Shown here piece after piece: positions 9,176 through 33,292 of a DNA stretch of 64,000 nucleotides (position 1 is its first letter; every line of letters starts with the position of its first letter). Origin of the DNA: Cystobacter ferrugineus (lineage in GTDB: Bacteria; Myxococcota; Myxococcia; Myxococcales; Myxococcaceae); assembly GCF_001887355.1 (NCBI RefSeq), contig NZ_MPIN01000004.1, forward strand, positions 124,001-188,000, read 5' to 3'. The notes beneath the pieces were generated by a model that made no database searches, had not been told where the DNA came from, and worked only from the letters and a program-made list of their open reading frames with translations. The position numbers and the translations under genes are program-made.

Positions 9176-10723
9176 ATGATTCCTCGCCGAACCTCGTTCC
9201 GCCCGTTCCTCGCCGCCGCGCTGACACTGGCGTCGGCGCTCGTCTCGGCCTGTGGCCAGGAGCCCGCCACCTCCCTCGGGGAGGAGTCGCCCGCGGAGTC
9301 CGCGAGCCAGACGGCGACGCTCACCGAACTCATCGTCAACGGAAATTTCAACGCGGGGAGCACCACGCCCTGGTGGAATGGCGCCAACACGCAGTCGCGC
9401 GTCGAGAACGCCCAGTGGCGGATCGATGTCACCACCGGCACCGCCAATGTCTGGGACGCGATCGTCGGCCAGAGCGGCATCCGCCTGACGAGCGGGCAGA
9501 GCTACACCCTGTCCTTCACCGCGTCGGCCTCGACGGCTGGGGCGCTGGTCACCACGGTGCAGACGGAGGCCGCCCCGTACACCACGACGCTGAACCAGCG
9601 GATCACGGTCGACGCCACGCCGCGCCGCTACTCCTTCCCCTTCACCTCGTCCCTGAGCACGGGCCAGGGCCAGGTGACCTTCCAGCTCGGTGGCGCGGCG
9701 GCCCGCACCCTCCGGCTCGATGACATCTCGCTCACGACGGGTACGGGCGGAGGCACGGATGGGGGCACTGGCGGAGGCTCGGACGGGGGCAGCGATGGGG
9801 GCACCGGCGGAGGCTCGGACGGAGGCACCGATGGGGGCTCGGGACCCCTGGCCATGACCAACGGCTTCTACGTGGATCCGAACTCCAACCCCTCCGCCTG
9901 GGTGAAGGCCAACAGCGGCGACTCGCGAGCCGCCAGCATCCAGTCGGCCATCGCGAGCAAGCCGATGGCGCGCTGGTTCGGCAACTGGAACAGCGACATC
10001 ACCTCGGCGGTGTCGAGCTACGTCGGCGCGGCGGCCGCCGCCGGCAAGCTGCCCGTGCTCGTGGCCTACAACATCCCCGGCCGCGACTGCGGCAGCCACT
10101 CGGGAGGCGGCGCGGGCAGCCCCGAGGCCTACCGGACGTGGATCTCCGGCCTCGCCTCGGGCATCGGCAACCGCCCCGCCATCGTCCTCATCGAGCCGGA
10201 TGCCGTCGCCCAGCTCGACTGCCTGCCCGACGACACCGCCCGGCAGACCCGCCTGGGCCTGCTGCGCTACGCCACCGAGCAGTTGCGTGACCGCGCCCCC
10301 AACACGTGGGCCTACCTCGACGGCGGCAACGCGCGGTGGATCGCCGCCGACACCATGGCGCAGCGGCTCCACTCCGCGGGCGTGAGCAACATCCGGGGCT
10401 TCGTGGTCAACATCTCCAACTTCTACACCACCGCCGAGTCCATCTCGTATGGCAACGCCGTCAGCGCCGCGCTGTCCAGCCGCTACGGCTACGGCAAGCC
10501 CTTCGCGGTGGACACCAGCCGCAATGGCAACGGCTCCAACGGCGAGTGGTGCAATCCCGGCGGGCGCAAGCTGGGCACCCTGTCCCAGGTGGGCGGCGGC
10601 GCCGAGCTGCTCTTGTGGGTGAAGATCCCCGGGGACTCCGACGGCACGTGTGGCATCGCCCCGAACACGCCCGCGGGCCAGTTCAGCCCGGACCTCGCCA
10701 TCCGCCTCATCAACGGCACGTAG
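9176..10723 (+). CDS. GH6 cellulase (endoglucanase/cellobiohydrolase) lipoprotein with N-terminal CBM
   Basis: 515 residues. Signal peptide with lipobox LVSAC (Cys26). Residues about 50-180 form a jelly-roll carbohydrate-binding module of CBM4/9 type (ELIVNGNFNAGSTTPWWNG, TLRLDDISL). A Gly/Ser/Asp linker (GGGTDGG, GGGSDGG repeats) leads to the catalytic domain at about 228-515. Both GH6 signatures are visible: YNIPGRDCGSHSGGG, with the catalytic-acid region, and LIEPDAVAQLDC. LLWVKIPGDSDGTCG matches the C-terminal active-site loop (WxKxPGExDG in the family, here GDSDG). The enzyme hydrolyses beta-1,4-glucan by inversion. As a lipoprotein it would be held at the outer membrane. GH6 in myxobacteria fits saprophytic cellulose use. 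Confidence 0.93.
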   Translation: MIPRRTSFRPFLAAALTLASALVSACGQEPATSLGEESPAESASQTATLTELIVNGNFNAGSTTPWWNGANTQSRVENAQWRIDVTTGTANVWDAIVGQSGIRLTSGQSYTLSFTASASTAGALVTTVQTEAAPYTTTLNQRITVDATPRRYSFPFTSSLSTGQGQVTFQLGGAAARTLRLDDISLTTGTGGGTDGGTGGGSDGGSDGGTGGGSDGGTDGGSGPLAMTNGFYVDPNSNPSAWVKANSGDSRAASIQSAIASKPMARWFGNWNSDITSAVSSYVGAAAAAGKLPVLVAYNIPGRDCGSHSGGGAGSPEAYRTWISGLASGIGNRPAIVLIEPDAVAQLDCLPDDTARQTRLGLLRYATEQLRDRAPNTWAYLDGGNARWIAADTMAQRLHSAGVSNIRGFVVNISNFYTTAESISYGNAVSAALSSRYGYGKPFAVDTSRNGNGSNGEWCNPGGRKLGTLSQVGGGAELLLWVKIPGDSDGTCGIAPNTPAGQFSPDLAIRLINGT

Positions 10724-13858: not shown

Positions 13859-16186
13859 ATGACCCCAACCGAGTACAAGGTCAAACCGGGCGACACGCTG
13901 TCCGCGATCGCTCGACATCACCATGTCACCGTGGATGACATCGCCCACCTCAACGGCATCAAGGACGTCAACCGCATCCGCGTCGGTCAGTCCCTGCGGA
14001 TTCCGGTGAAGAGCGCCCCGAAGGCCCAGTCCGCACCCAAGGCCCCGCCCCCGGCCTCCCCGCCTCCCCGCCCGTCCGTTCCGCCTCCGCTCCTGTCCCC
14101 TTCCGTGCGACCCCGAACCCATCGGGTCCGCCTGTCGGAGACCCTGCTCCAGATCGCGCAGCTCTACGGGCTCTCGGCATCGGAGCTGGCGAAGATCAAT
14201 GGCCTCGCCGATCCCCGCCTGCTCTGGGTCGGCCAGGAGCTGAAGCTCCCCGCGGGGAGCGCGTCCGCCCCGCCCGCTTCCGCCCCTTCGCACCCGAACA
14301 ACGAGGCCGCTTCCACCGGCGCACACGCCTCGCCTCACACGGGCTCCTCCCCACCTTCGATGAACGCCATCCGGGAGGTCGCCTTCCGGATCACCGGGGC
14401 CATCGAGGGAGGCAAGGCCAGTAGCTACCAGACCAAGGACAAGGGAATCGTCAGCTACGGAAAGCACCAGGCCACCCTGGCCTCCGGCACGCTCGAAGTC
14501 ATCATCACCCAGTACGTCAAGCAATCCAGCTCCGAGGCGGCGAAGGGCCTGGCCAGGTACAAGGACAAGCTCAGCGAGAAGGACAGCTCGCTGCGCACGG
14601 ACGTGACCTTCAAGAAGCTGCTCCTGGAGGCGGCGGATGATCCGCTGATGAGCACCATCCAGGACTCGGTGTTCGCCAAGAACTACTGGTCCAAGGCCGA
14701 GCAGAGCGCGAAGAATGACAAGCTCAAGACCCCGCTCGCCTTCGTCATGTATTACGACACCCACATCCAGGGCGGACTGTCCGAGATACGTGCGAAGACC
14801 GCGGCGGCCCTGAAAGGCAAATCCTATACAGAGGCGGAATTCCTCACGGAATTCAACCACCAGCGCAAGGCCCGGCTGACAAGACTCGCGGCGGCCGCGA
14901 GGGCGAAGGGCGACGAAGATCATGCCGGAATGCTCGAGGGCTCGCGAAGCCGTGTGACCACCCTGCAGAATCTGGTGGACGCGAAGGACCTCCAGCTCCG
15001 GGGTGACCGGGATGGAATGCTCACCGTCAATGGCAAGAAGGTGCGGGGCCTGGATCCGTCCCACGCCTCCTCGGCCACGGCCTCGTCCGACTCGCCCGCG
15101 ATGTCCTCCCCGGGCACCAGCGCCTCGTCCCCGGGCCCGTCCGCGAAACAGCGGACCCTCACCGGCTCGGTCGGCACGGGAGGCCACAACGCGGACGCCG
15201 ATGTCCGGCTGGTCCAGAACCTGCTCAACGCACACCGTCTGCCGCCGCGCGCGCTGCTGCCAGTCAACGGCCGGGTCGACCTGCAGCTCGTCTGGGCCAT
15301 CACCGAGTTCCAACGCTCGATGGGCATGCAGAAGCCAGACGGCCGCGTCGATCCCGGAGGCGGCACGTTCAAGGCGCTCTGCGCACAGCAGTCCAACCCC
15401 TGGGACGTGTCCCTGCCCATCGGGACCTCGGGAGGCGGGAACAGTGCCCCAGCCCACATCCCGGCCGCGGCGAACAAGGCGCATGCCGCCACCCTCGCGA
15501 AGCTCGCGAAGGCGGCCCGCCAGAGATTCAAGCTGAAGAACCTGGGAGCATGTGCCCGGGGCATGAGCGAAATGCTGCAGGCCGCGGGGTACACCTACGC
15601 GGGGGGCCGGCCCCGTGTCGCGGACGGAATCATCAAGAACCAGGCGTATGACTACAGCACGGACACCTGGGTGTCGGGCACCACCGTGGGCTACTACGTG
15701 GGCAGCCGGAGCCACCTCAAAGAGGGCAGGGTCCTTCCCGGCAAGCAGAAGTCCGCGGCCGCCAACGTGAGCGCCAGGTTCTTCGCCCACACCTTACGGA
15801 TGTTCGGCTTCGCCGATTGCACGAAGTGCCTGCCCGGCAATGGCAGGAGCGGAGCGGTCGCCCCGGAAAGCGTGAAGGCGCTTCGGGCCCTGCCGGAGGG
15901 CGCGGTGATTGTTTTTGGCCCCGCCCTCAACCGCAGCGTCCAGAAGACCGGCGGGCACTACTCCGTCGGTGGGCATGGCCACGCGGGCCACGTGGGCGTC
16001 CTGGTGCACGAGGGCCAGGAGGCGCTCGTCGTCGCGGATGGCCTGCTGGCCAAGGGGGGCGTGCGCTACACGGTGGAGTCGTGCCTGTCGAACTACGCCT
16101 GGGCCATCGGCTTCGTCCCGACCACCGCCGGCAAGGCCCTGACCGCGAAGGACCTGCCCAAGAGCTCGCTTCTCGGACCGGCATAG
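13859..16186 (+). CDS. multidomain peptidoglycan hydrolase: 2x LysM, muramidase/chitosanase-like, PG-binding, cysteine-hydrolase-like
   Basis: 775 residues without a signal peptide: the first LysM begins at residue 4 (YKVKPGDTLSAIARHHHVTV). Order: LysM 4-49, Pro-rich linker, LysM 86-131, a lysozyme-superfamily/GH46-like domain at about 170-385 (ITGAIEGGKASSYQTKDKGI with Glu183 as candidate acid, then SYGKHQATL), a PG_binding_1-like domain at about 433-510, and a C-terminal domain at about 540-756 with GACARGM (Cys565) and GHAGHVGVLV (His711), which fits an NlpC/P60- or CHAP-like papain fold. Two cutting domains plus three wall-binding domains mean cell-wall degradation. The missing signal suggests export by a dedicated machine or release by lysis. 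A GTPase gene follows 46 bp downstream. Confidence 0.75.
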   Translation: MTPTEYKVKPGDTLSAIARHHHVTVDDIAHLNGIKDVNRIRVGQSLRIPVKSAPKAQSAPKAPPPASPPPRPSVPPPLLSPSVRPRTHRVRLSETLLQIAQLYGLSASELAKINGLADPRLLWVGQELKLPAGSASAPPASAPSHPNNEAASTGAHASPHTGSSPPSMNAIREVAFRITGAIEGGKASSYQTKDKGIVSYGKHQATLASGTLEVIITQYVKQSSSEAAKGLARYKDKLSEKDSSLRTDVTFKKLLLEAADDPLMSTIQDSVFAKNYWSKAEQSAKNDKLKTPLAFVMYYDTHIQGGLSEIRAKTAAALKGKSYTEAEFLTEFNHQRKARLTRLAAAARAKGDEDHAGMLEGSRSRVTTLQNLVDAKDLQLRGDRDGMLTVNGKKVRGLDPSHASSATASSDSPAMSSPGTSASSPGPSAKQRTLTGSVGTGGHNADADVRLVQNLLNAHRLPPRALLPVNGRVDLQLVWAITEFQRSMGMQKPDGRVDPGGGTFKALCAQQSNPWDVSLPIGTSGGGNSAPAHIPAAANKAHAATLAKLAKAARQRFKLKNLGACARGMSEMLQAAGYTYAGGRPRVADGIIKNQAYDYSTDTWVSGTTVGYYVGSRSHLKEGRVLPGKQKSAAANVSARFFAHTLRMFGFADCTKCLPGNGRSGAVAPESVKALRALPEGAVIVFGPALNRSVQKTGGHYSVGGHGHAGHVGVLVHEGQEALVVADGLLAKGGVRYTVESCLSNYAWAIGFVPTTAGKALTAKDLPKSSLLGPA

Positions 16187-17400: not shown

Positions 17401-20169
17401 TCAGGGAGCCCAGGGCGCCACGACGTTCCAGGTCGCGTCCGCGTTGAAGCCACCGGCCGAGTCCCAGCCCGTCCCAGCCCCCGAGGCGATCCACGCCTCG
17501 GCGGAGTAGTGGCGCAGGTAGCGTCCGGGGAAGTTGTAGGACTCGAACGAGACACCAGAGCCCGACAGGCCCGGCCGGGCACAGAAGGTGGCATCCTGCT
17601 TGAAGAGCGCCGTGCCATCGGAGGCGTCCCTGCGGATGCGGCTGTTGGAGTGGCGCAGGTAGCTGCCGGGGTAGTTGCGCGACTCGAAGGAGTAGCAGCT
17701 CGACTCGGCCAGGCCGGGCACGAGCTTGAAGGTCGCGTCCTGCTTGAGCGTGGTGTTGCTGTTGCCCTCCACCACCTCGGTGCGGCCCAGGCTGTCCTGG
17801 TGGCGCAGGTAGCGGTTGGTGTAGCCGGGCGTCACCACCTGGATGGACTGGAAGGCGCCCATGGACACGTTCGCCTCGCTCTGCCACCACGGAGACGCGA
17901 TGCCCCACGACGCGTCCTGACGGAAGCCCGTGGTGTTCTCGAGGGCGTCCACCCACACCTCGCCGTTGCGGTGGCGCATGTAGGAGCCGGGCTTGTTCTT
18001 GGACTCGAGCGACACGGCCGTCGAGCCGTCGAGCGCCGCGCGGGCGCAGAAGGTGGCGTCCTGGTCGAAGAGCGCCGTGCCGTCCCGCGTGTCCCGGCGG
18101 ATGCGGCTGTTGAAGTGGCGCAGATAGCTGCCCGGGAAGTTGCGCGGCTCGAAGGAGTAGCAGGAGGCGTCCGCCAGACCGGGAACGATCCTGTACGTCG
18201 CGTCCTGCTTGAGCGTGCCGGTGCCAGCGCTGTCCACCACCTCGGTGAAGCCCAGGCTGTCCTGGTGGCGCAGGTAGCGGTTGGTGTAGCCGGGCGTCAT
18301 CACCTGCAGGGAGCGGTGCTGCCCCGAGCCCAGCAGGCCCTGGCTGTTGAGCTGGCGCGAGGCGGTGAGCAGGTTCTGGTGCGCCGCGCGCACCTGGGCG
18401 GCATCCACCTTGAGGACGGCGCGGTCATAGGTATACAGGCCGTTGACCTCCCCCTCCACGTCGGTGATCTCCGTGTAGACGGATGCGTTCAGACCCGGCC
18501 GGTACATCAGGCTCCGCAGCCCCTGGACGAGGCCCAGGTAGCGGCTGGTGAGCGTCGCGCTGTCGGGAACCAGCTCGTAGTAGAAGAACTGGCCGGTGGG
18601 GCTCCACACGTGGCCGTCGTACTTCAGGCCCAGGCCGCCGAACTCGCCCAGCACCGCGGCGCGCGTGGACGACGCGGGCGGAGAACCCGGGCCCACGTAG
18701 ACGTGCCAGTCCGCCAGGTCCCCGTTGCCACCATCCACGGCGCCGCAGCAGTTGATGCCACTCATGTTGTCCACCAGGCGGCTCGGGTCCCAGCTCTTCG
18801 CCAGGGCCGCCAGCCGGTTCTGGTCATACTGGCCCCAGCCCTCGTTCTGGATCACCCAGGTGATGACGGAGGGCGAGCCGCGGTGCTCATCGATCATCTC
18901 GCGCATCTCCAGCTCGAACTGGGTGCGCGCGGCGGCCGTGGGCGTCTTGCCCGAATCCATGCAGGGCATGTCCTGCCACACGAGGATGCCCAGCTTGTCC
19001 GCCCAGTAGAACCAGCGCTGGGGCTCGACCTTGATGTGCTTGCGGATGAGGTTGAAGCCCAATTCCTTGTGCTTCTCGATGTCGAACTTGAGCGCCGCGT
19101 CCGTGGGCGCGGTGTAGACGCCATCCGGCCAGTACCCCTGGTCCAGCGTGCCCAACTGGAAGACGAACTGGCCATTGAGCACCGGCCGCAGCACGCCGCC
19201 CACGAGCTTGAGGGCAATGGAGCGCATGCCGAAGTAGCTCGACACCTGGTCCACCGTGGTGGAGCCGCTCTTGAGCGACACGCGCAGGTCGTAGAGGAAG
19301 GGGCTCTCGGGAGACCACAGCTTGGGCGAGGGCACGGGGATGCGGAGCTCCGAGCCCACGGCACCAGTGACGCTGCTCACCTGCGTGGCGCCATCGAAGG
19401 CCACGGCCTCGACGGTCTGGCCGGCGATCCCAGCGCCCTGCACCGTGAGGCGAAGGGCGGCGCCGGCCACGTCCGGCGTCATGTCCAGCCGGGTGATGCG
19501 CGCGGAGGGCGTGGGCTCCAGCCACACCGTCTGCCAGATGCCCGAGGCGGCCGTGTACTCGATGCCCTGCGGATTGTTGGTCTGCTTGCCCACCGGCTGC
19601 CCGCCCGCGTCGGTGGGATCATAGACACCGACGAGGATCTCGTTGGTGCCGCCGTTGAGGAAGTGGGTGATGTCGAAGCTGAAGGCGTCGAAGCCACCCT
19701 GGTGGGTGCCGACGAGCTGCCGGTTGACGTAGACGGCGGCCTCCCAGTCCACGGCGCCGAAGTTGAGCTGGACGCGGCGGCCGCTCCAGGCGGCGGGCAC
19801 GGTGAAGGTGCGGCGGTACCACATGCGGTCCTGGTGCCGCTTGATGCCGGAGAGCGCGGACTCGATGGGAAAGGGGACGAGGACGCTCTCGGCGAGGTTC
19901 TGGCCGAACGGAGGCGTCTGGCCAGCGGTGGCGTTGCCAAACTGCCACTCCCCATTGAGGTTGAGCCAGTCGGCGCGGACCATCTGCGGCCGGGGGTATT
20001 CCGGCAAGGCATTGGAGGGGGACACCTGCGCGGTCCACTGCGTGGCCAGGGGAGGCGCCTTGGGCGCCCAGGCGGCCTGAGCGCCATGCAGCGGGAACAG
20101 GCCACACAACAGGGGCAGCAGCCGCAGGGCGGCGCTACCCACACGCGACAGTCCAGGGGATCGGCTCAT
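17401..20169 (-). CDS. secreted GH2-family glycosidase with C-terminal CBM42 (AbfB) domains
   Basis: 922 residues from the ATG at 20169, preceded by GGAGGAAACC. A signal peptide ends at HGAQA. It has the GH2 sugar-binding jelly roll (WLNLNGEWQFGN, MWYRRTFTVP), an immunoglobulin-like middle and a TIM barrel with VITWVIQNEGWGQYD (acid/base Glu443) and TEITDVEGEVNGLYTYDR, where the nucleophile Glu lies. The last roughly 290 residues hold two AbfB/CBM42 domains made of repeats with PGYTNRYLRHQDSLG, PGSYLRH and TFCARPGL. CBM42 binds arabinofuranose side chains. The likely role is removal of beta-galactosyl, glucuronyl or related residues from arabinose-decorated plant polysaccharide; the precise bond is open. 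Confidence 0.9.
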   Translation of the reverse strand: MSRSPGLSRVGSAALRLLPLLCGLFPLHGAQAAWAPKAPPLATQWTAQVSPSNALPEYPRPQMVRADWLNLNGEWQFGNATAGQTPPFGQNLAESVLVPFPIESALSGIKRHQDRMWYRRTFTVPAAWSGRRVQLNFGAVDWEAAVYVNRQLVGTHQGGFDAFSFDITHFLNGGTNEILVGVYDPTDAGGQPVGKQTNNPQGIEYTAASGIWQTVWLEPTPSARITRLDMTPDVAGAALRLTVQGAGIAGQTVEAVAFDGATQVSSVTGAVGSELRIPVPSPKLWSPESPFLYDLRVSLKSGSTTVDQVSSYFGMRSIALKLVGGVLRPVLNGQFVFQLGTLDQGYWPDGVYTAPTDAALKFDIEKHKELGFNLIRKHIKVEPQRWFYWADKLGILVWQDMPCMDSGKTPTAAARTQFELEMREMIDEHRGSPSVITWVIQNEGWGQYDQNRLAALAKSWDPSRLVDNMSGINCCGAVDGGNGDLADWHVYVGPGSPPASSTRAAVLGEFGGLGLKYDGHVWSPTGQFFYYELVPDSATLTSRYLGLVQGLRSLMYRPGLNASVYTEITDVEGEVNGLYTYDRAVLKVDAAQVRAAHQNLLTASRQLNSQGLLGSGQHRSLQVMTPGYTNRYLRHQDSLGFTEVVDSAGTGTLKQDATYRIVPGLADASCYSFEPRNFPGSYLRHFNSRIRRDTRDGTALFDQDATFCARAALDGSTAVSLESKNKPGSYMRHRNGEVWVDALENTTGFRQDASWGIASPWWQSEANVSMGAFQSIQVVTPGYTNRYLRHQDSLGRTEVVEGNSNTTLKQDATFKLVPGLAESSCYSFESRNYPGSYLRHSNSRIRRDASDGTALFKQDATFCARPGLSGSGVSFESYNFPGRYLRHYSAEAWIASGAGTGWDSAGGFNADATWNVVAPWAP

Positions 20170-20322
20170 GGTTTCCTCCACGGAACCGGCCTGGGGGGTA
20201 GTCGGCACGGGTCCGCTTCACGCTCCGTCTACCCGAACTTTCCTTGAATTAACAGGAAGACGACTACTTCTCATTATCCGACAGAATAGGGGTAGGCTGG
20301 GACGAGGCTCGAGGGGGGCATC

Positions 20323-22616: not shown

Positions 22617-22993
22617 GATTGCAAGGTAGCTAGCCGACTACCGGGTGAATGGTGGCCAGTCGGGGGTGACACGGTTCGGCTGACGAATATTCCGCCCCAC
22701 GATTTGCAAGCGATTGCCCGCTCGGTTCCATGAACCCCGAGGCCTGTCACCGCGCCCAGGGCCTCCCGCGCCCCCGGACGGGGATGTGAATCGCCCTGGA
22801 GGGCAGGTGTTCTGTTGTCTGACTTCGGCGTCCTATTGCCTTCCGGACAGCACGGAGACGCATGGGATTGCGGGTGTTCCCCCGGATCAGGACAATCGGG
22901 CGGTCTCGAGGCAAGCACTCCCTCCCCCTCGACGGACGTGTTCAACCGGCTCGTCGAGGTCGGGGGGCCTCGGCGAGCCCTCGGAGATGGTCG
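22617..22993. other. divergent intergenic region between histidine kinase and exopolysaccharide operon
   Basis: 377 bp without a credible gene. It must contain the promoters for the kinase (minus) and the wza-led operon (plus). I could not identify a convincing sigma54 (-24/-12) or sigma70 promoter by eye. The wza start is preceded by GGAGATGG. Confidence 0.5.
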
Positions 22994-24115
22994 ATGAGGC
23001 GCGTCCTCTTGCTGGTCTGGGTATTGTGCACGAGCGCGTGCGCATGGGGCCCGGGCATGTACATGGACGAGGGCGCCCTCCGGAAGCGATACGCCGAGAA
23101 CACAGACGCGGGCACCGGTGACGAGTTCAAGGTCGTCCCCATCGACGTGGGCCTGCTGAAGGAGCAGCAGAAGGCCCGTCTGGGGACGCGGCCCCCGCCC
23201 CTCCAGGATCCACTGGCGGAGCTCGCGGCGAACTACAACTACCGGGTGACCGCCCATGACGTGCTGAGCGTCATCGTCTGGGACCACCCCGAGCTCACCA
23301 TCCCAGCGGGCGAGTTCCGCTCCGCCGAGGCCACCGGCCACCCGGTGTCGACCGATGGGACGATGTTCTTCCCCTACGCGGGGATCCTCCAGGTCGCCGG
23401 CAAGACGCTGCCCGAGATCCGGGAGCTGCTGACGCAGCGGTTGACCCACGTCATCGAGAAGCCCCAGCTCGACGTACGCGTGGTGGGCTTCCGGGGGCAG
23501 AAGGTCCAGGTCACCGGGGAGGTGCTCGCCCCCAGCAGTCTCCCCATCACGGACGTGCCCATGCGGGTGCAGGACGCCATCAGCCAGGCGCGAGGGCCCA
23601 CCCCCGAGGCCGATCTGCGCGGCGTCACACTCACCCGGGACGGAAAGACGTCCACCCTGGATCTCCAGGCGCTCTACGAGCAGGGGGACATCAGCCAGAA
23701 CTGGCTCCTGCGGGACGGAGACATCCTTCATGTCCCCGACCGGAGCCGCAACAAGGTCTTCGTCCTCGGCGAGGTCCGCAAACCTTCGTCTCGCATCATG
23801 GTGAAGGGCCGGATGACACTCGCGGAGGCGATCGGCGACACCGAGGGGTTCGATCCAATCAGTTCCAACCCGGCGAAGGTCTATGTCATCCGCGGCAGCT
23901 TCGACCAGCCCACCATCTACAAGCTCGATGCCCGGTCACCGGACGCGCTCCTGCTCGCCACGCAATTCCAACTCCAACCACACGACGTTGTCTTCGTCTC
24001 GGCGCACAACTTGACGCGCTGGAATCGCATCATCACTCAAATCCAGCCAACAGTTCAGATGCTCTGGCAGGCAGTAGATATCGGCGACAGGTCCGTCGTA
24101 TTCCCACCACCATGA
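22994..24115 (+). CDS. wza: outer-membrane polysaccharide export protein (OPX/Wza-like lipoprotein)
   Basis: 373 residues from the ATG at 22994; upstream in-frame ATGs add an Arg-rich non-conserved segment. The lipobox is VLCTSAC. The polysaccharide-export (PES) domain is seen as YRVTAHDVLSVIVWDHPELT and SVDGTMFFPY-like text (VSTDGTMFFPYAGILQVAGK), followed by two SLBB domains (VTGEVLAPSSLPITD; VFVLGEVRKPSSRIMV). Wza homologues form the octameric channel through which Wzx/Wzy-made polysaccharide leaves the cell. The stop codon overlaps the start of wzc (ATGA), and the gene leads the exopolysaccharide operon. Confidence 0.93.
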   Translation: MRRVLLLVWVLCTSACAWGPGMYMDEGALRKRYAENTDAGTGDEFKVVPIDVGLLKEQQKARLGTRPPPLQDPLAELAANYNYRVTAHDVLSVIVWDHPELTIPAGEFRSAEATGHPVSTDGTMFFPYAGILQVAGKTLPEIRELLTQRLTHVIEKPQLDVRVVGFRGQKVQVTGEVLAPSSLPITDVPMRVQDAISQARGPTPEADLRGVTLTRDGKTSTLDLQALYEQGDISQNWLLRDGDILHVPDRSRNKVFVLGEVRKPSSRIMVKGRMTLAEAIGDTEGFDPISSNPAKVYVIRGSFDQPTIYKLDARSPDALLLATQFQLQPHDVVFVSAHNLTRWNRIITQIQPTVQMLWQAVDIGDRSVVFPPP

Positions 24116-26226
24116 CGAGCGTCCCCAGCCGCGAGGACCCCGCTCGCTCCAACCACGGGGCACCCGAAGACGAGCTCGATCTGCGCAGCCACCTCGGCAT
24201 CCTGCTCGAGTCCCGCGGGTCGATCCTCGCGACGCTCTTGCTGACGCTCGTGGCGGGCTCGCTGTACCTGCTCGTCGCGCCCCCCGTCTATCGCGCGAAC
24301 GTCGTTCTCCAGATCGACAAGAAAGGCAGCCGGCTCGGAGAGCTCGACGCGCTGCTCGCGGAGCTCTCCGGAGAGGTGTCCACGGAGATCGAGATCATCA
24401 GCTCGCGGACGCTGCTGGGAAAGGTCGTCGATGAACTCCAGCTCGACGTGGAGGCCGGACCGCGACGCTTCCCGTTCACCTCGGACGCAGGGCGTCTTCA
24501 GGTGAAGCAGCTCAGCGTGCCGCCGGAACTGGAGGAGCTTCCGCTCACGCTCGTGGCGGGCGAGGCCGGTGCCTACACGCTCCTCGATCCGGACTCCGAA
24601 CCGCTCCTCGACGGGCGCGCCGGTGAACCCGCCGCCACGCCACCAGACTCCCTCTGCCAGGTGGAGCTCCTCGTCTCCGAGCTCGACGCCGGCCCGGGCA
24701 CGCGGTTCCAAGTGACCCGGCGCTCGCGCATCGAGGTGGTGGAGGAGCTCCAGCGGACGCTGCGCCTGAGCGAGAAGGGCACCAACACCGGAGTGCTCTC
24801 CGTGGCCCTCGAGGGAGAGGATCCCGCGAAGCTCTCCGCGACCCTCGGGGCCATCGCGCGCCACTACGTCCGTCAGAACGTCGAGCGCAGGAGCGAGGAG
24901 GTCGAGAGGACGCTGGCGTTCCTCGACACCCAACTGCCCGGACTGCGCCAGGAGCTGGAGCGGGCGGAGGGGGCCCTGAGCGCCCACCGCGCCGGAAGCG
25001 GAATCGTCGATCTCGGGCGGGAGGCGCAGGCGATCCTGGATCGAAGCGTCGACATCGAGAAGTCGATCTCGGCGCTCGTGCTCGAGCGCTCCGAGTTGCG
25101 GCAGCGCTTCACCGGCAAACACCCGGTGCTCGTCACCACGCGTCAGAAGCTGGCGCGATTGCAGGCGGACCGGGCGGCCATCAACGCCCAGCTCAAGGGC
25201 CTGCCGAGCGCGGAGCTCAAGTCGACCCAGCTCATGCGGGACGTGACGGTCGCCACCGAGCTGTACCTCCAGCTCAACAACAAGGCCCAGGAATACCGGG
25301 TGCTGAAGTCGAGCATCGCGGGCAACGCGCGGATCCTCGATGAGCCCGTGGTGTCCCGTCTGCCGGTGCGCCCCAGCAAGCCAGGCGTCATCGCGCTCAG
25401 CCTCGTGCTGGGGCTGACGCTCGGCGTGGCGCATGCCTTCGCCCGGCAGGCGCTCCGCAAGGGCGTCTCGGACCCCGCCATGGTCGAGGCACAGCTCGGA
25501 GTGCCCATCCATGCCACCCTCCCTCTCGCGTCGAACCGCGAGGCGCTCGCCATCCTGGCCCAGACCCATCCGCGCCACCCGGTCACCGAGAGCCTGCGCG
25601 GCCTGCGCACCCGCATCCAGCTCGCACTGAGGGACTCGCCCAACAACGTGATCGCCCTCACCGGGCCGAGTCCCGGAGTGGGCACGTCCTTCGTCGCCCT
25701 CAACCTGGCCTGGGTGCTGGCGGACTCCGGCAAGCGCGTCCTGCTCGTGGACGCCAACCTGCGCGGGGGCACGCTCCACCGCGGTTTCCGGGCCGAGCCC
25801 GCCCGGGGCCTCTCCGAGGTCCTCGGCGGCACGGCCAGCCTGGAAGAGGTGGTGCGGCGGCTCCCCGGTCAGAGCCTGTCCTGGCTGTCCACGGGCGCCC
25901 TCCCGCCCAACCCCGCCGAGTTGCTGCAGAGCGACGCGTTCACGGCGCTCGTGGCGCGGATGTCGGCCGGGTATGACCTCGTCCTCCTCGACACGCCCCC
26001 CATCCTGGCGGTGACCGACGCGGCGCTCGTGGGCCGGCACGCGGGGATGAACCTCGCCGTGGTGCGCGCGGGCGTCCATCCGATGAAGGAGATTTCCGCG
26101 GCCCTCCACCGGCTCGAGCAGGACGGAGTCCTGGTGCGGGGAATCATCCTCAATGGAGTGCCGCGCTCCTCGGCGGGACGCGTCGTGAGCGGCATCTACC
26201 AGTACGACTACCCGACCACCGGCTGA
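24112..26226 (+). CDS. wzc: polysaccharide co-polymerase / BY-kinase-like protein with degenerate Walker A (Wzc-like)
   Basis: 704 residues. A Wzz domain with membrane helices (about 38-58 and 425-445) surrounds a long periplasmic coiled region; the C-terminal cytoplasmic domain has the BY-kinase layout. The Walker A loop, however, reads GPSPGVGTS (518-526): the invariant Lys is Thr525 (codon ACG). Walker A' reads VDANLR with Asn549 where Asp is usual. Walker B (LVLLDTPP) and a C-terminal Tyr cluster (YQYDY, Tyr696, 698, 700) remain. In active kinases the Walker Lys is needed for ATP hydrolysis, so this may be a pseudokinase that still acts as chain-length regulator and channel partner of Wza. 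Translationally coupled to wza. Confidence 0.9.
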   Translation: MTSVPSREDPARSNHGAPEDELDLRSHLGILLESRGSILATLLLTLVAGSLYLLVAPPVYRANVVLQIDKKGSRLGELDALLAELSGEVSTEIEIISSRTLLGKVVDELQLDVEAGPRRFPFTSDAGRLQVKQLSVPPELEELPLTLVAGEAGAYTLLDPDSEPLLDGRAGEPAATPPDSLCQVELLVSELDAGPGTRFQVTRRSRIEVVEELQRTLRLSEKGTNTGVLSVALEGEDPAKLSATLGAIARHYVRQNVERRSEEVERTLAFLDTQLPGLRQELERAEGALSAHRAGSGIVDLGREAQAILDRSVDIEKSISALVLERSELRQRFTGKHPVLVTTRQKLARLQADRAAINAQLKGLPSAELKSTQLMRDVTVATELYLQLNNKAQEYRVLKSSIAGNARILDEPVVSRLPVRPSKPGVIALSLVLGLTLGVAHAFARQALRKGVSDPAMVEAQLGVPIHATLPLASNREALAILAQTHPRHPVTESLRGLRTRIQLALRDSPNNVIALTGPSPGVGTSFVALNLAWVLADSGKRVLLVDANLRGGTLHRGFRAEPARGLSEVLGGTASLEEVVRRLPGQSLSWLSTGALPPNPAELLQSDAFTALVARMSAGYDLVLLDTPPILAVTDAALVGRHAGMNLAVVRAGVHPMKEISAALHRLEQDGVLVRGIILNGVPRSSAGRVVSGIYQYDYPTTG

Positions 26227-26241
26227 GCGCGAGCGCCTCCC

Positions 26242-27498
26242 ATGACATGGATCCGATGCTCAGGACTGGGGTTCATCGCCGCGCTCTACGTGCTCGCGGG
26301 CCGCTGGGGCTTCCACCGGCTGGCCTCCGCCAACCCCGAGCCAGACCCGTTCCTGGAGCTGCGGTTGTGGATCGTCCTGGGAGGCGTGGTGCTCGCCACC
26401 CTGGGACTGCTCCACCGCGCCCACCGCGCGGCGAGGCCCGGAGAGAGCCGGCCCGACACCCGGCTGTCGATGGCGCTGCTGCTGTTCCTCGGCTACCTGT
26501 GCACCAGCTCGCTCTGGGCGCCCGACGCGAGCTTCGCCCTGGGAAAGCTCTACGATCTCGTCCTCGTCGGGGTGATGAGCGTGGGCTTCGGACTCGCCGC
26601 GCTCCGGCAGCCGGCGGCGCGGGTGCTGGACGCGTTCTGGGCCGTGGTGGTCGTGGCCACGGGGCTGCTGGCGCTCACCGGCGTGAGCCAGTTGCTGGGT
26701 GGCGGGGGCGGCGCGCGGCTGGCGGTCCTGGGAGGAGGACCGAACATCTTCGCCCGGCTCATGGGGCTGTTCGCGCTCGGCGCCCTGTACTTCTGGCACC
26801 GGCGGGGACAGACGTGGCTCTGGATTCCGATGGCGGCCGCCGGCGTGATGCTCGCGCTGCTCACCGGCTCCCGGGGAGGCACGGCCGCCATCCTCGCGGG
26901 TGTCCTCACCTTCCTCGTGGTGGGGTGCATCCCCTTGCGCCGGCTCGCCCTCCTGTCGCTGCTCGCCACGGCCGTCGTCCTGGCGGTGATCACCCTCACC
27001 CCCCTGGGCAAGGCGCTCACCCGGTCCATGGAGGAGCGCTTCCTCCGGTTGACCCTGAACTACGAGGGAGGGAGCGACTCGGAGAGCAAGGTCTACCTGT
27101 CGGGACGCGAGTCCCTGTATGCCGCCGCGTACGAGCTCGGGCTCGACAACCCGGTGGCGGGGGCGGGGCTCGCCGCCTTCCCCGCGCTCGGGCTGGGCGT
27201 CTATCCCCACAACCTCTTCCTCGAGGTGTTCTGCGAGGGCGGCGCACTGGGCCTCGCCTTCCTCGGATGGACCCTGTTCGCCTTCCTCCGCTCGGCGTTC
27301 CGAGGCCGCCACCGCATCGACGGCGCGACCGTCGGCGCGGTGGTGCTGGTGCTGCTCGGCAGCCAGTCCAGTGGCGACCTCTATGACACCCGGGCCCTCT
27401 TCCTGCTGATGGTCATGTCCTCGTGCACCCTGGCCGCGAGGACTCCCTTCGTCCCCTCTCCTCCTCTCGCCCACCCCGCTGTCCACGGAGCCGCCTGA
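26242..27498 (+). CDS. wzy: O-antigen/exopolysaccharide polymerase (Wzy-like)
   Basis: 418 residues, about 11-12 hydrophobic segments. A Wzy_C/WaaL-type signature is present: LLTGSRGGTAAI in the middle, YLSGRESLYAAAYELGLDNP in the large periplasmic loop, then YPHNLFLEVFCEGG near the C-terminal helices. The PHN...E motif is typical of both ligases and polymerases; location between wzc and the glycosyltransferases in a Wza/Wzc operon favours polymerisation of undecaprenyl-linked repeat units in the periplasm. The gap to the preceding gene is 15 bp and to the next is 1 bp, consistent with one transcript. Confidence 0.85.
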   Translation: MTWIRCSGLGFIAALYVLAGRWGFHRLASANPEPDPFLELRLWIVLGGVVLATLGLLHRAHRAARPGESRPDTRLSMALLLFLGYLCTSSLWAPDASFALGKLYDLVLVGVMSVGFGLAALRQPAARVLDAFWAVVVVATGLLALTGVSQLLGGGGGARLAVLGGGPNIFARLMGLFALGALYFWHRRGQTWLWIPMAAAGVMLALLTGSRGGTAAILAGVLTFLVVGCIPLRRLALLSLLATAVVLAVITLTPLGKALTRSMEERFLRLTLNYEGGSDSESKVYLSGRESLYAAAYELGLDNPVAGAGLAAFPALGLGVYPHNLFLEVFCEGGALGLAFLGWTLFAFLRSAFRGRHRIDGATVGAVVLVLLGSQSSGDLYDTRALFLLMVMSSCTLAARTPFVPSPPLAHPAVHGAA

Positions 27499-27499
27499 C

Positions 27500-28717
27500 A
27501 TGAAGATCATCTACCTGCACCAGTACTTCACCACGCCCACCATGCACGGCGGGACCCGGTCCTACGAGCTCGCCCGCCGCCTGGTCGGCATGGGACACGA
27601 GGTGCACCTGGTGACCTCGGACACCGAGCCCACCCAGGACGCGAAGGGCTGGCGCGAGACGAACGAGAGCGGCATCCACGTGCACTGGCTCCCGGTGCCC
27701 TACTCCAACTCGATGAGCTACGCGGACCGGATGCGTGCCTTCAGCCACTTCGCCCTCAACTCCGCTCACCGGGCGATGCGGCTGTCGGGGGACGTGGTCT
27801 TCGCCACGAGCACCCCGCTGACCATCGCCGTCCCGGGCATTCTCGCCTCGCGCTGGAACAACAAGCCCATGGTCTTCGAGGTGAGGGATCTCTGGCCCGC
27901 CCTGCCCATCGCGGTCGGCGCGCTCAAGAGCCGCCCCGCCATCCTCGCCGCCCAACTGCTCGAGCGGGCCGCCTACGCGGGAGCCGCGCACATCGTCGCG
28001 CTCTCGCCGGGAATGAAGGCCGGAGTGGAAGCGGCGGGTGTGTCCCCGGAGAAGATCACCGTCATCCCCAACCTCTGCGACCCGGAGCGCTTCCACGTCC
28101 CCGCCTCGGCGGGCGCGAGGTTCCGGAGCAAGTACCCGTGGCTCGGGGACCGGCCCATGGTCCTGTACGCGGGCACCCTGGGTCTGGTGAATGGGGTCGA
28201 CTATCTCGTGCGGGTCGCCGCGGACATGCTCGATCGAGACCCGGAGGTGCGCTTCGTCATCATGGGACACGGACGTGAGGAGCAGGCCCTGCACGGGCTC
28301 GCCGATCGGCTGGGCGTGCGAGACCGCAACCTCTTCTTCCTGCCCAGCGTGCCCAAGGCGGAGATCCCCTCGGTGCTGTCCGCGGCCACCATCGCCACCT
28401 CGCTCTTCACCGACGTGCCGGGCATGCAGGACAACTCCGCCAACAAGTTCTTCGACGCGCTCGCCGCCAGCCGGCCGCTCGCGCTCAACTACGGCGGCTG
28501 GCAGGCGGAGCTGATCGAGCGGGAGCGGTTCGGCCTGTGCCTGCCGCCCAAGGACACCGCCGCCGCGAGCGAGCTGCTGGAGAGCCGGGTGCGGGATTCC
28601 CGGTGGCTCACCGAGGCGGGAGCGCGGGCCGGAAGGCTCGGCCGGGAGCGCTTCTCCGCCGACTCCGCGGCCCACCGGCTCGCCGAGGTGCTCCAGCGCG
28701 CGGTGGCTAGCGCGTGA
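27500..28717 (+). CDS. GT4 glycosyltransferase (WbuB-like)
   Basis: 405 residues, GT-B fold. The N-terminus MKIIYLHQYFTTPTMHGGTR is the pattern of WbuB-type transferases that add amino-sugars (L-fucosamine in the E. coli precedent). LVTSD and FEVRDLWPALPIAVG follow. The nucleotide-sugar half has LYAGTLGLVNGVDYLV, FVIMGHGREEQAL and a degenerate acceptor/phosphate region (VPGMQDNSANKFFDALAASRP). It would add a sugar to the lipid-linked repeat unit on the cytoplasmic face. The stop overlaps the wzx start (GTGA). The exact sugar is not predictable. Confidence 0.88.
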   Translation: MKIIYLHQYFTTPTMHGGTRSYELARRLVGMGHEVHLVTSDTEPTQDAKGWRETNESGIHVHWLPVPYSNSMSYADRMRAFSHFALNSAHRAMRLSGDVVFATSTPLTIAVPGILASRWNNKPMVFEVRDLWPALPIAVGALKSRPAILAAQLLERAAYAGAAHIVALSPGMKAGVEAAGVSPEKITVIPNLCDPERFHVPASAGARFRSKYPWLGDRPMVLYAGTLGLVNGVDYLVRVAADMLDRDPEVRFVIMGHGREEQALHGLADRLGVRDRNLFFLPSVPKAEIPSVLSAATIATSLFTDVPGMQDNSANKFFDALAASRPLALNYGGWQAELIERERFGLCLPPKDTAAASELLESRVRDSRWLTEAGARAGRLGRERFSADSAAHRLAEVLQRAVASA

Positions 28718-30027
28718 CGCGGCGGTCGCTGGGAGGCAACTTCGCCTGGACGCTCTCGTCCGGGCTCGTGTACGCGCTCGCCCAGTGGGGCGTGCTGGTG
28801 GCCTGCGCCCGGCTCGGCACCATGGAGCTGCTGGGCGAGTTCGCCCTCGGTCTGGCCCTCACCGCCCCGGTGATGCTCCTCGCGCGGATGAACCTGCGCA
28901 CGCTCCAGGCCACCGACGCCCGGAGCGCCTACGGGTTCGAGCACTACCTCGGGCTGATGGTGCTCAACGTGCTCGGGGGGGTGCTGCTGTGCTGCGCCCT
29001 CGGCTGGCTGGCGGGGTATCCGGCGCGCACCGGCCTCGTCATCGCGCTGCTCGCGCTGGCCAAGGGCTTCGAGGCCCTCAGCGAGGTGTTCTACGGCGCC
29101 CTGCAGAAGGCCGAGCGGATGGGCCTCATCGCCCGGTCGATCATCGCCAAGAGCGTGCTCTCCGTGGTGCTCGTGGTGCTCGCGCTCCTGCTCACGAGGA
29201 GCGCGGCCGCCGCGGCCGCCGCCCTGGGGCTGTCCTGGGCGCTCGTGCTCCTGCTGTTCGACGCGCACGCGTACCGGCGCGTGTTCGGAGGGAACTCTCC
29301 CTGGGGCCGGCTGTGGCACACGCCGTGGCGGGACCAGGGCACGCGCCTGAAGAGCCTGCTGGGACTGGCCTACGCGCTGGGAATCACCGCCCTGCTGGGC
29401 TCGCTGCGCCCCAACGTGCCCCGCTACCTCCTGGAGGCGCACGCCGGCGAGGCCGAGCTGGGCATGTTCGCCGCGCTCGCCTACTTCACGGCCCTGGGAG
29501 GCCGGGTGGTCCATGCACTCGGGCAGGCGATGAGCCCCCGGTTGGGGCGCTACCACGCGGCGGGGGACGCGGCGCGCTACGGCCGGGCACTCGCGGGCTT
29601 CACGGGGGGAGCGGCCCTGGTGGGCGTCTGCGCCATCGCCGGCGCGGCGTTGCTCGGACGTCCGGTACTGGCGTTCTTCTATGGGGCCGCCTACGCGCGC
29701 AACCTCGAGCTGTTCGTCTGGCTCATGGGTGCCGCCGCGCTGGAGTACGTCTGTGTGAGCTTGCAGTTCGGGCTCACGGCGGCGCGGGAGCTGAAGGCCC
29801 AGGCGCCGCTGCTCGTCCTCTCCGTCCTGGTGGTCGCGCTGGGCAGCGCCTGGTGGGTGCCCTCCGTGGGGACCGTGGGCGCGGCGTGGGCCCTGGCGCT
29901 GGGCTGGTTCGTCGAGCTGGGCGGCGGCGCGTGGCTCTCCGTGCGCGCCTGGAGGCGCCTCGCGCGACAGGAGGAGAACACGAAGGCCCATGGCCCGCGC
30001 GTCCAGGCGGCGGACGCGGCGCCATGA
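28714..30027 (+). CDS. wzx: polysaccharide flippase (Wzx-like, MATE/MOP superfamily)
   Basis: 437 residues with about 12 predicted membrane helices and a GTG start overlapping the GT4 stop by four bases. Opening RRSLGGNFAWTLSSGLVYALAQWGVL and LGTMELLGEFALGLALTAPV (read as separate blocks) match the first helices of O-antigen/PST flippases. It would move undecaprenyl-diphosphate-linked repeat units to the periplasm for Wzy. A 186-bp gap separates it from the next gene, the largest inside the forward operon. Confidence 0.87.
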   Translation: MTRRSLGGNFAWTLSSGLVYALAQWGVLVACARLGTMELLGEFALGLALTAPVMLLARMNLRTLQATDARSAYGFEHYLGLMVLNVLGGVLLCCALGWLAGYPARTGLVIALLALAKGFEALSEVFYGALQKAERMGLIARSIIAKSVLSVVLVVLALLLTRSAAAAAAALGLSWALVLLLFDAHAYRRVFGGNSPWGRLWHTPWRDQGTRLKSLLGLAYALGITALLGSLRPNVPRYLLEAHAGEAELGMFAALAYFTALGGRVVHALGQAMSPRLGRYHAAGDAARYGRALAGFTGGAALVGVCAIAGAALLGRPVLAFFYGAAYARNLELFVWLMGAAALEYVCVSLQFGLTAARELKAQAPLLVLSVLVVALGSAWWVPSVGTVGAAWALALGWFVELGGGAWLSVRAWRRLARQEENTKAHGPRVQAADAAP

Positions 30028-30811: not shown

Positions 30812-31957
<1,146 letters not shown>

Positions 31958-31972
31958 TCGAGGCTCCTGCGG

Positions 31973-32009
31973 AAAAAGGGGCGTGCCGGACACTCGACCG
32001 GCACGCCCC
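31973..32009 (-). terminator. rho-independent terminator upstream of pglE
   Basis: Perfect 12-bp arms GGGGCGTGCCGG (31978-31989) and CCGGCACGCCCC (31998-32009) are followed on the minus strand by TTTTT (31973-31977). It should end transcription of the preceding secreted-protein gene (stop at 32069), giving pglE its own promoter or leaving it dependent on attenuation. Confidence 0.75.
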
Positions 32010-32068
32010 GGAGCCTGCCCATCCACTCCCTATCGCGCACTCGGGCGAAAGGGAGGGGCTTGTGTTGT

Positions 32069-33292
32069 CTACCGCGCGGCCAGCGGCGCGGCCGCCTCGG
32101 ACAGCAGCCGCACGTTGAGCGCGCCGTTGCCGAAGAACTGGGTGTTGTTGCCAACCTTGTGCGTCTCGAGCCGCTTCTGCAGGTTGGTGTCGTAACGGCC
32201 GAGCTTCATCAGGCCATCATTGAACCAGCCCGTGCCGCTCCCCGAGCCGTCGACGTACTCGGCGTACTTGCCCGCCGAGGGCCAGATGACGGAGTTGAGC
32301 GTCGCCGTGAAGGCGCGAACGTCCTGATCCGTCCACTCCATCTTCGCATCGTGCGCCTCGACGATGAAGGCCATCACCCCGTTGCCGTGGGCCACGTCCT
32401 GGCCAGGGCGGGAGCGGGAGGCCCACTGGTCGCTCCAGAAGTAGGCCGACGCGTTCACGGGGCTGGGAGCCATCTGCTCGCGCAGGGACGACGCGGCGTT
32501 GGGCAGGTCCCGGTTGATGTTGTTGAAGACGGCCACGTAGTTGGCCTTGCGCGCCGAGTCCGTCGTCATGAGCGACAAATCCATGGCGATGTAGGCCCAG
32601 TGCGTGGCCATGTGCGTTCTGTTGCGGTAGATGTAGCTGTTCGCCCCGCGCTTGGACCACTTCTCGAAGATGTTCTTCTCGGAGAACGCCAGCAGCTTGT
32701 CGTACTGCGCGCGGTAGTTGGCGTTGTTGTAGACGTCGGGCGTCTCACGCATGGCGCGCAGCAGGCGCGTCACGTACCGCCAGCAGTAGCTCTCGAACAG
32801 CGGCACCTCCTGCCCCAGCGTGTCCGAGCGCGCCGAGGCCCAGCCCAGGTACACATCCTTGAACTGGCTCTTCGGCAGGGACGCGGAGCTCTTGGCGTTG
32901 CTCACCATGTTGTTGACGTAGAGCAGGGCGCGGTCGAGGTACTCCGTCTTCCCCGTGGCCCGGAACATCGCGGTGTTCCCATCGATGCCGTAGGCGAGAT
33001 CGTAGAACTGCCAGCTATCGAGCGAGGTGCTCTTGGGCAGGAAGCTCGAGGTGTGCTCCGAGTTCCAGTTCTTCACGAACAGCTTCTCCCAGTCAGCCAC
33101 GGAGCGTAGCCCAGCGGGCGTCTGGAGCGCGGCGAGCTCGTCCGGACTCGTGGCCAGCTCTTGCGCGAACTCCTCACCGGCGGGCTCCAGCCCGGCGTTG
33201 GGATCACAGGCCGCTCCGAATGCCAGGGAGAGGAACATCAACGAGGACAGAGCGAGCCCACGGGTGCTTCGATGACGAATACCAGACATCAA
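32069..33292 (-). CDS. secreted lipoprotein, possible (alpha/alpha)-toroid carbohydrate-active enzyme
   Basis: 407 residues. The signal peptide ends at LAFGAAC (lipobox). The mature protein is rich in Trp, Tyr and Asn and in helices such as WQFYDLAYGIDGNTAMFRAT, YWR-type text (ESYCWRYVTRLLRAM) and HMATHWAYIAMDLSLM. This alternation of helices with WAY, NGVMAF and GTGWFNDGLMKLG resembles six-hairpin lyases or glycosidases. I know no exact family. Its position inside the exopolysaccharide locus fits a polysaccharide lyase or hydrolase that trims or releases the polymer (inference). Confidence 0.6.
   Translation of the reverse strand: MMSGIRHRSTRGLALSSLMFLSLAFGAACDPNAGLEPAGEEFAQELATSPDELAALQTPAGLRSVADWEKLFVKNWNSEHTSSFLPKSTSLDSWQFYDLAYGIDGNTAMFRATGKTEYLDRALLYVNNMVSNAKSSASLPKSQFKDVYLGWASARSDTLGQEVPLFESYCWRYVTRLLRAMRETPDVYNNANYRAQYDKLLAFSEKNIFEKWSKRGANSYIYRNRTHMATHWAYIAMDLSLMTTDSARKANYVAVFNNINRDLPNAASSLREQMAPSPVNASAYFWSDQWASRSRPGQDVAHGNGVMAFIVEAHDAKMEWTDQDVRAFTATLNSVIWPSAGKYAEYVDGSGSGTGWFNDGLMKLGRYDTNLQKRLETHKVGNNTQFFGNGALNVRLLSEAAAPLAAR

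What the first reader, a model, noticed from the sequence alone, without database searches (positions are those of the whole stretch)
24112..26226. Wzc-like protein with Walker A lysine replaced (predicted pseudokinase)
The P-loop reads GPSPGVGTS; codon 525 is ACG (Thr) where AAG/AAA (Lys) is invariant in active BY-kinases. Walker A' has Asn549 in place of Asp. The C-terminal tyrosines remain, so it could be a substrate of another kinase or act without phosphorylation cycling.
Basis: partly seen in the sequence, partly recalled or inferred. Interest (0 to 1): 0.7.

Follow-up and report, generated by a model that had tools for sequence, protein, structure and literature searches.

The report
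Capsule-export kinase that lost catalysis
A soil bacterium's polysaccharide-export protein keeps the body of a tyrosine kinase but has lost the lysine such kinases need, and its relatives show how that came about step by step, so it probably works as an unphosphorylated scaffold.

Summary
P0001 (24112-26226, +) is a 704-aa Wzc-type co-polymerase in a wza-wzc-wzy-GT-wzx operon. Walker A is GPSPGVGTS (Thr525, aligned with E. coli Wzc K540); Walker A' is LVDANLR (Asn549, aligned with D564). It is not a sequencing error: of 27 distinct family orthologues covering the kinase domain, all have Asn549, 19 lack Lys525 (16 Thr, 3 Ala), 8 keep it; the 20 more distant relatives aligned all have K and D. 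In the 19, the other 14 motif positions scored and the tail core YQY are invariant, so the pocket is preserved, not decayed. The 27 have 2-3 tail Tyr (relatives 3-9). A Wzb-like phosphatase lies beside a wzc in 9 of 12 K/D genomes; none of the 27 Asn549 genomes has a match scoring in that range. A CpsB-type phosphatase is missing from 17 of 19 Lys-less genomes, present in 8 of 8 Lys-keeping ones. Best reading: a fused BY pseudokinase, a natural counterpart of engineered Wzc K540M, acting as a phosphorylation-independent octamer scaffold. BY pseudokinases, stand-alone and fused, are already in print, so this is a new variant of a known kind; the graded loss series is the new part. Catalytic inactivity is inferred, not measured.

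The parts
22862..24115 (+). wza-like outer-membrane export protein (OPX), 417 aa; its stop overlaps the wzc start by 4 bases
   Evidence: Poly_export, SLBB, Wza_C above cut-off; PRK15078 345.9 bits (cut-off 333); conserved neighbour
24112..26226 (+). Wzc-type PCP-2a with degenerate BY-kinase domain, 704 aa
   Evidence: Wzz, WZC_N, GNVR, AAA_31 above cut-off; TIGR01007 136 bits, cut-off 108; Wzc, E 6.5e-125
25588..25608 (+). E493-x2-R496-x2-R499 oligomerisation motif, intact
   Evidence: invariant in 47 of 47 distinct sequences
25663..25689 (+). Walker A GPSPGVGTS (residues 518-526)
25684..25686 (+). codon 525 ACG (Thr) where Lys is expected
25750..25764 (+). Walker A' core D547-A-N549-L-R551
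25756..25758 (+). codon 549 AAC (Asn) where Asp is expected
25990..25998 (+). Walker B D627-T-P, intact
26197..26211 (+). C-terminal tail YQYDY (residues 696-700)
   Evidence: Y696, Q697, Y698 invariant in 27 of 27 Asn549 orthologues
26242..27498 (+). wzy-like polymerase (Wzy_C), 418 aa
   Evidence: conserved neighbour
27500..28717 (+). GT4-type glycosyltransferase, 405 aa
   Evidence: conserved neighbour
28714..30027 (+). wzx-like flippase (Polysacc_synt), 437 aa
   Evidence: conserved neighbour
30812..32026 (-). DegT-family sugar aminotransferase, conserved flank of the operon
   Evidence: (LegC family, 369.8 bits, below cut-off 420)

Best explanation
P0001 is the Wzc-type co-polymerase (PCP-2a) of a Wzx/Wzy polysaccharide pathway. 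Its BY-kinase domain folds like Wzc but has lost tyrosine-kinase catalysis (inferred from T525 and N549). It most likely works as an unphosphorylated scaffold: the periplasmic part sets chain length and contacts Wza, while the cytoplasmic domains form the ring, each tail (YQYDY) resting in the neighbour's kept but non-catalytic pocket, as in engineered Wzc K540M. The pocket may still bind nucleotide. Any assembly/disassembly cycle would be driven by binding (nucleotide, lipid-linked repeat units, Wzy or Wza), not by phosphate. Shown: sequence, operon, clade-wide substitutions, preserved pocket and tail, phosphatase distribution. Inferred: inactivity, octamer, tail docking, phosphorylation-independence. 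Likely order of loss by parsimony: locus-linked wzb gone and tail shortened, then D549N, then K525T, with Ala from Thr in some lineages.
For: T525 and N549 align with Wzc K540 and D564. 27 of 27 orthologues have N549; 19 lack K525; 20 of 20 K/D relatives aligned have both. Clade support 100/99 and 99/97 with P-loop columns masked. In the 19, 14 of 14 other motif positions are invariant against 93 of 244 kinase-domain columns (P 7e-7; positions chosen by me after seeing the alignment). Kinase-domain dN/dS 0.26-0.72 in 14 Lys-less pairs. wza-wzc-wzy-GT-wzx order kept in 16 of 17 loci read, the 17th cut by its contig end. Wzb-like LMW-PTP (111.5-129.4 bits) in 10 of 12 K/D genomes, 9 of them within about 1.7 kb of a wzc match; in the 27 Asn549 genomes the best LMWPc score is 72.1 bits, and the three such genes read (own genus) are ArsC-like, CVHNAGRS. 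CpsB_CapC missing in 17 of 19 Lys-less, present in 8 of 8 Lys-keeping. AlphaFold2 model pLDDT 89.6; best PDB match Wzc K540M octamer 7nhs. K540M gives stable octamers and a stable Wza-Wzc complex (passages); tail of one monomer sits in the next one's active site (passage); MgADP is bound in K540M and K55M structures.
Against: Nothing here measures activity. Two Lys-less genomes (G038, G016) keep a CpsB-type phosphatase, and the Corallococcus-type genomes lack it although their BtkB-like kinase has intact motifs, so its absence does not by itself prove absence of tyrosine phosphorylation. Genomes are not independent: Lys loss is one or two events (minimum 2, single clade not rejected, p-AU 0.476) and CpsB absence falls in two groups. 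Engineered K540M abolishes Wzc phosphorylation (passage), and by recall such mutants are defective in capsule in E. coli, so the natural protein would need an unseen bypass. YQY conservation could equally mean phosphorylation in trans. In the window's own group kinase dN/dS exceeds periplasmic in 5 of 5 pairs, hinting at some relaxation.
Confidence: 0.62

Rival explanations
1. Pseudokinase tail phosphorylated in trans by a stand-alone BY kinase (BtkA-like) elsewhere in the genome, so phosphorylation cycling persists.
For: YQY is invariant in 27 of 27. The genome has one other BY kinase above cut-off, G000:C23:20329-20922, with GEGKT and LIDADLR intact. Y-tail position next to a neighbour's site is known for the family.
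Against: That kinase lies beside its own Wzz-domain co-polymerase gene (C23:22227-22475). No Wzb-like or CpsB-type phosphatase was found in the genome. EcpK authors argue from mutants that pseudokinase function does not need active BY kinases (section 10 read).
Confidence: 0.13
2. The domain keeps weak ATPase or autokinase activity without the P-loop lysine, perhaps through another basic residue.
For: All other motif positions scored are kept; ADP binds Lys-less BY kinases. R501 is Arg in 19 of 19 Lys-less and 2 of 8 Lys-keeping; R476 in 17 of 19 and 0 of 8.
Against: Replacing this lysine abrogates Wzc phosphorylation (passage). R476 and R501 lie outside the three catalytic motifs; whether they reach the pocket was not tested. 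N549 further removes an acidic active-site residue.
Confidence: 0.09
3. Nucleotide-gated switch: the pocket binds ATP or ADP without phosphotransfer, and nucleotide state sets ring assembly.
For: S526, D547, R551, D627 and the P-loop glycines are invariant in 19 of 19; K540M and K55M structures hold ADP-Mg.
Against: Conservation could serve tail docking alone; no binding data.
Confidence: 0.12
4. Decaying or non-functional gene, or sequencing error.
For: wzc is less conserved than its operon neighbours.
Against: Intact frame in the 27 orthologues, dN/dS below 1 in every pair measured, conserved operon, and the same residue in many genomes.
Confidence: 0.04

Closest known systems
Wzc of E. coli (PCP-2a with BY-kinase), including the engineered K540M form
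   Same: Full-length homology, same domains and fold, same operon partners; T525 sits exactly where K540M was engineered
   Different: Lys and second Walker A' Asp lost naturally; 3 tail Tyr; no Wzb-like phosphatase found in the genome
EcpK of Myxococcus xanthus (stand-alone BY pseudokinase, PMC12004946)
   Same: Myxobacterial BY pseudokinase proposed to act as a phosphorylation-independent scaffold for a co-polymerase
   Different: EcpK is a separate protein with all Walker motifs and all tail Tyr gone; here the domain is fused and only two catalytic residues are changed
Fused PCP-pseudokinases listed by Cuthbertson et al. (SMc01795 and others; seen only as cited in PMC12004946)
   Same: Co-polymerase and BY pseudokinase in one chain
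   Different: Not compared here by sequence; their residue changes were not seen
PssP2 of Rhizobium leguminosarum (passages of PMC4182512)
   Same: Co-polymerase with kinase-like domain judged inactive
   Different: Lacks Walker A, A', B and the Tyr cluster altogether
CapB1 of Staphylococcus aureus (passages of PMC3795738)
   Same: BY kinase inactive in assays, discussed as a pseudokinase
   Different: Separate chain, binds ADP-Mg and keeps the motifs

Membership tests
Wzc / PCP-2a co-polymerase | Wzz, WZC_N and GNVR domains with C-terminal P-loop domain in one chain | tested here: met
   all four above Pfam cut-off; NCBIfam Wzc equivalog 499 bits, below its 1068 cut-off
Wzc / PCP-2a co-polymerase | Encoded with wza, wzy, wzx | tested here: met
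active BY-kinase | Walker A lysine | tested here: not met
   Thr525
active BY-kinase | Two Asp in Walker A' | tested here: not met
   D547 kept, N549
active BY-kinase | Walker B Asp | tested here: met
   D627
active BY-kinase | C-terminal Tyr cluster | tested here: inconclusive
   three Tyr, at the low end of relatives (3-9)
active BY-kinase | Autophosphorylation | not testable with these tools
   needs purified protein
BY pseudokinase (as for EcpK) | BY-kinase fold | tested here: met
   (3la6 TM 0.88-0.92)
BY pseudokinase (as for EcpK) | Catalytic residues missing | tested here: met
   two of the key residues; unlike EcpK the motifs are otherwise intact
BY pseudokinase (as for EcpK) | Needed for export without phosphorylation | not testable with these tools
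   needs mutants

The most novel reading that the evidence does not exclude
A whole myxobacterial lineage has turned its Wzc from a phosphate-driven into a binding-driven machine: a naturally Lys-less, nucleotide-binding ring locked in the unphosphorylated form, with the Tyr tail reused as a docking latch, and the phosphatases lost around it. The surviving K/D, K/N and T-or-A/N orthologues record the steps.
Probability: 0.4. Interest if true: 0.72.

Novelty: new variant of a known kind. Interest (0 to 1): 0.5.

Why it matters
Whether capsule export needs phosphorylation cycles or only ring assembly is an open question; structures so far rely on an engineered Lys-to-Met form. An operon whose own Wzc lost that lysine, with close orthologues that keep it, is a natural experiment for that question, and a graded series of how a bacterial kinase becomes a pseudokinase.

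Tried and rejected
Sequencing error: rejected. Gene decay: rejected. Several clearly independent Lys losses: not supported; the tree needs at least two K/non-K changes, but a single Lys-less clade is not rejected. A compensating lysine in the P-loop: none; R476 and R501 are group-specific but outside the motifs. dN/dS as a test of relaxed kinase constraint: mixed (kinase above periplasmic in 5 of 5 pairs of the window's group, below in 8 of 9 other Lys-less pairs and 5 of 5 Lys-keeping pairs, above in 2 of 2 K/D pairs). Search with ParA-like AAA_31 was uninformative: it returned a chromosome-partition-type protein. An EcpK orthologue in this genome was not searched for. How often BY kinases elsewhere lack the lysine was not measured.

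In print: searches gave no paper on this myxobacterial locus; the library holds open-licence papers only, and Cuthbertson et al. was not seen itself.

Full report
Observation. The ORF 24112-26226 (+) encodes 704 residues. Pfam finds Wzz, WZC_N, GNVR and AAA_31 above their cut-offs; TIGR01007 scores 136 bits against a cut-off of 108; the nearest solved structures are Wzc octamers (best E 6.5e-125). In that alignment residues 506-607 pair with Wzc 521-622 without gaps, so T525 = K540 and N549 = D564.

Surroundings. Upstream is a wza-like gene overlapping by four bases; downstream follow wzy, a GT4 glycosyltransferase and wzx, with 15-base or shorter gaps or a 4-base overlap. Of 17 orthologous loci read with flanks, 16 have wza-wzc-wzy-GT-wzx in this order and a DegT aminotransferase beyond wzx; the 17th (L035) ends with its contig inside the glycosyltransferase (two genomes appear twice among the 17). 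The more distant locus L105 keeps wza, wzc, DegT and a weak wzx match; L106 keeps wza and wzc only.

Relatives. In 96 genomes of the family, 29 have a match at E up to 1e-90. One of these (G011) has two K/D proteins and one (G104) is partial; the other 27 are distinct orthologues covering the kinase domain, all with N549. At 525: 16 Thr, 3 Ala, 8 Lys (recounted in 73). All 20 K/D sequences aligned with them, from G011, other families of the order and four gammaproteobacterial records, have K and D. These 20 are best matches fetched within loci caps, not a census. The 27 form a clade with 100/99 support, 99/97 when the P-loop columns and 549 are removed. On the masked tree the fewest K/non-K changes are two; holding the 19 Lys-less together costs 0.85 log-likelihood (p-AU 0.476), so one loss or two cannot be told apart. 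K (AAG) to T (ACG) and T to A (GCG) are single-base steps.

Is the pocket decaying? In the 19 Lys-less sequences the 14 other motif positions that I scored (E493, R496, R499, G518, P521, G524, S526, N531, D547, N549, R551, D627, T628, P629) are all invariant, against 93 of 244 kinase-domain columns (hypergeometric P 7e-7). I chose the positions after seeing the alignment and they are conserved in the family anyway, so the point is only that they have not decayed. Of 30 kinase-domain columns invariant in the K/D set, 23 keep their residue in the 19, and 7 do not (463, 466, 504, 519, 525, 549, 654). Y696, Q697 and Y698 are invariant in all 27; Y700 is kept in 25 of 27. Kinase-domain dN/dS (counting method) is 0.26-0.72 in 14 Lys-less pairs, 0.27-0.36 in 5 Lys-keeping pairs; pairs are not independent.

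Tail and phosphatases. The 27 have two or three Tyr after N681, the 20 K/D relatives three to nine; the one at three includes L013, the K/D protein nearest the clade, which shares the YQYxYP ending. A Wzb-like LMW phosphatase (111.5-129.4 bits) is present in 10 of 12 K/D genomes tested, in 9 of them within about 1.7 kb of a wzc match and in one about 19 kb away. In the 27 Asn549 genomes the best LMWPc match is 72.1 bits; I read three of these genes, from the window's genus, and they have the CVHNAGRS motif of arsenate reductases (family recalled), while four of the K/D ones read have C[VT]GNICRS. The other 24 genomes rest on score alone. G011 has a Wzb-like gene (118 bits) 12 kb from its second wzc, not at the locus of L013. 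The CpsB_CapC family, which by recall includes the M. xanthus phosphatase PhpA, is found in 8 of 8 Lys-keeping genomes and in 2 of 19 Lys-less ones (G038, G016), and not in the window's genome or its two same-genus carriers. Against a simple reading, Corallococcus-type genomes lack it while keeping a BtkB-like kinase with intact motifs (G032, G047).

Other BY kinases. In the window's genome only two places score above the TIGR01007 cut-off: this gene and a stand-alone kinase at C23:20329-20922 with intact motifs, next to a Wzz-domain gene at C23:22227. Full Wzc-like BtkB orthologues seen in other family genomes were not found above cut-off in the three genomes of this genus that carry the gene.

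Structure. An AlphaFold2 model of residues 440-704 from 45 sequences has mean pLDDT 89.6 and pTM 0.88; the tail is low-confidence. Foldseek's best PDB matches are Wzc K540M octamer chains and the Wzc kinase-domain octamer 3la6.

Mechanism. From passages read: Lys540 replacement abrogates phosphorylation and gives homogeneous octamers (PMC8285477), and a stable Wza-Wzc complex (PMC12881504); in the unphosphorylated octamer one monomer's tail lies in the next one's active site (PMC10294653); Lys-less BY kinases still hold ADP-Mg (PMC3795738; titles of 9exo, 9exq, 9i2q). P0001 has the same lysine missing by nature, the pocket otherwise kept and the tail core kept. The simplest model is a ring stabilised by tail docking that works without phosphate cycling. 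How the natural protein escapes the defect that engineered forms show is unknown.

Known or new. The EcpK paper (abstract, passages, sections 9 and 10 read) defines BY pseudokinases, proposes the phosphorylation-independent scaffold, and cites Cuthbertson et al. for fused examples in other bacteria. So the kind is known. What I did not find in the searches made is this lineage, its graded series, or the accompanying phosphatase pattern.

Noticed in passing
window 32069-33292 (-): Conserved 407-aa protein beside the DegT gene in the orthologous loci (cut off in L035), with no match in Pfam, NCBIfam or PDB sequences; possibly an enzyme acting on the polymer.
   Followed up: partly
window 22862-30027: Outside the genus, wzc (56-75% identity) is mostly less conserved than wza, the glycosyltransferase and wzx of the same operon.
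   Followed up: partly
G032, G047 and twelve further Corallococcus-type genomes: No CpsB-type phosphatase found in these 14 genomes; in the two checked, the BtkB-like kinase has intact motifs. What dephosphorylates it is unclear.
   Followed up: no
G000, G002, G003: No BtkB-like fused kinase above the TIGR01007 cut-off, unlike most other carriers tested.
   Followed up: no
G011:C4 and G011:C6 (L106, L105): One genome with two K/D wzc loci, one with a Wzb-like gene 12 kb away, the other with the shortened tail: a possible intermediate.
   Followed up: partly
window 9176-10723 (+), 13859-16186 (+), 17401-20208 (-): Plant- and wall-polymer enzymes near the operon: GH6 with CBM, LysM with GH46, and GH2 with AbfB domains.
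   Followed up: no
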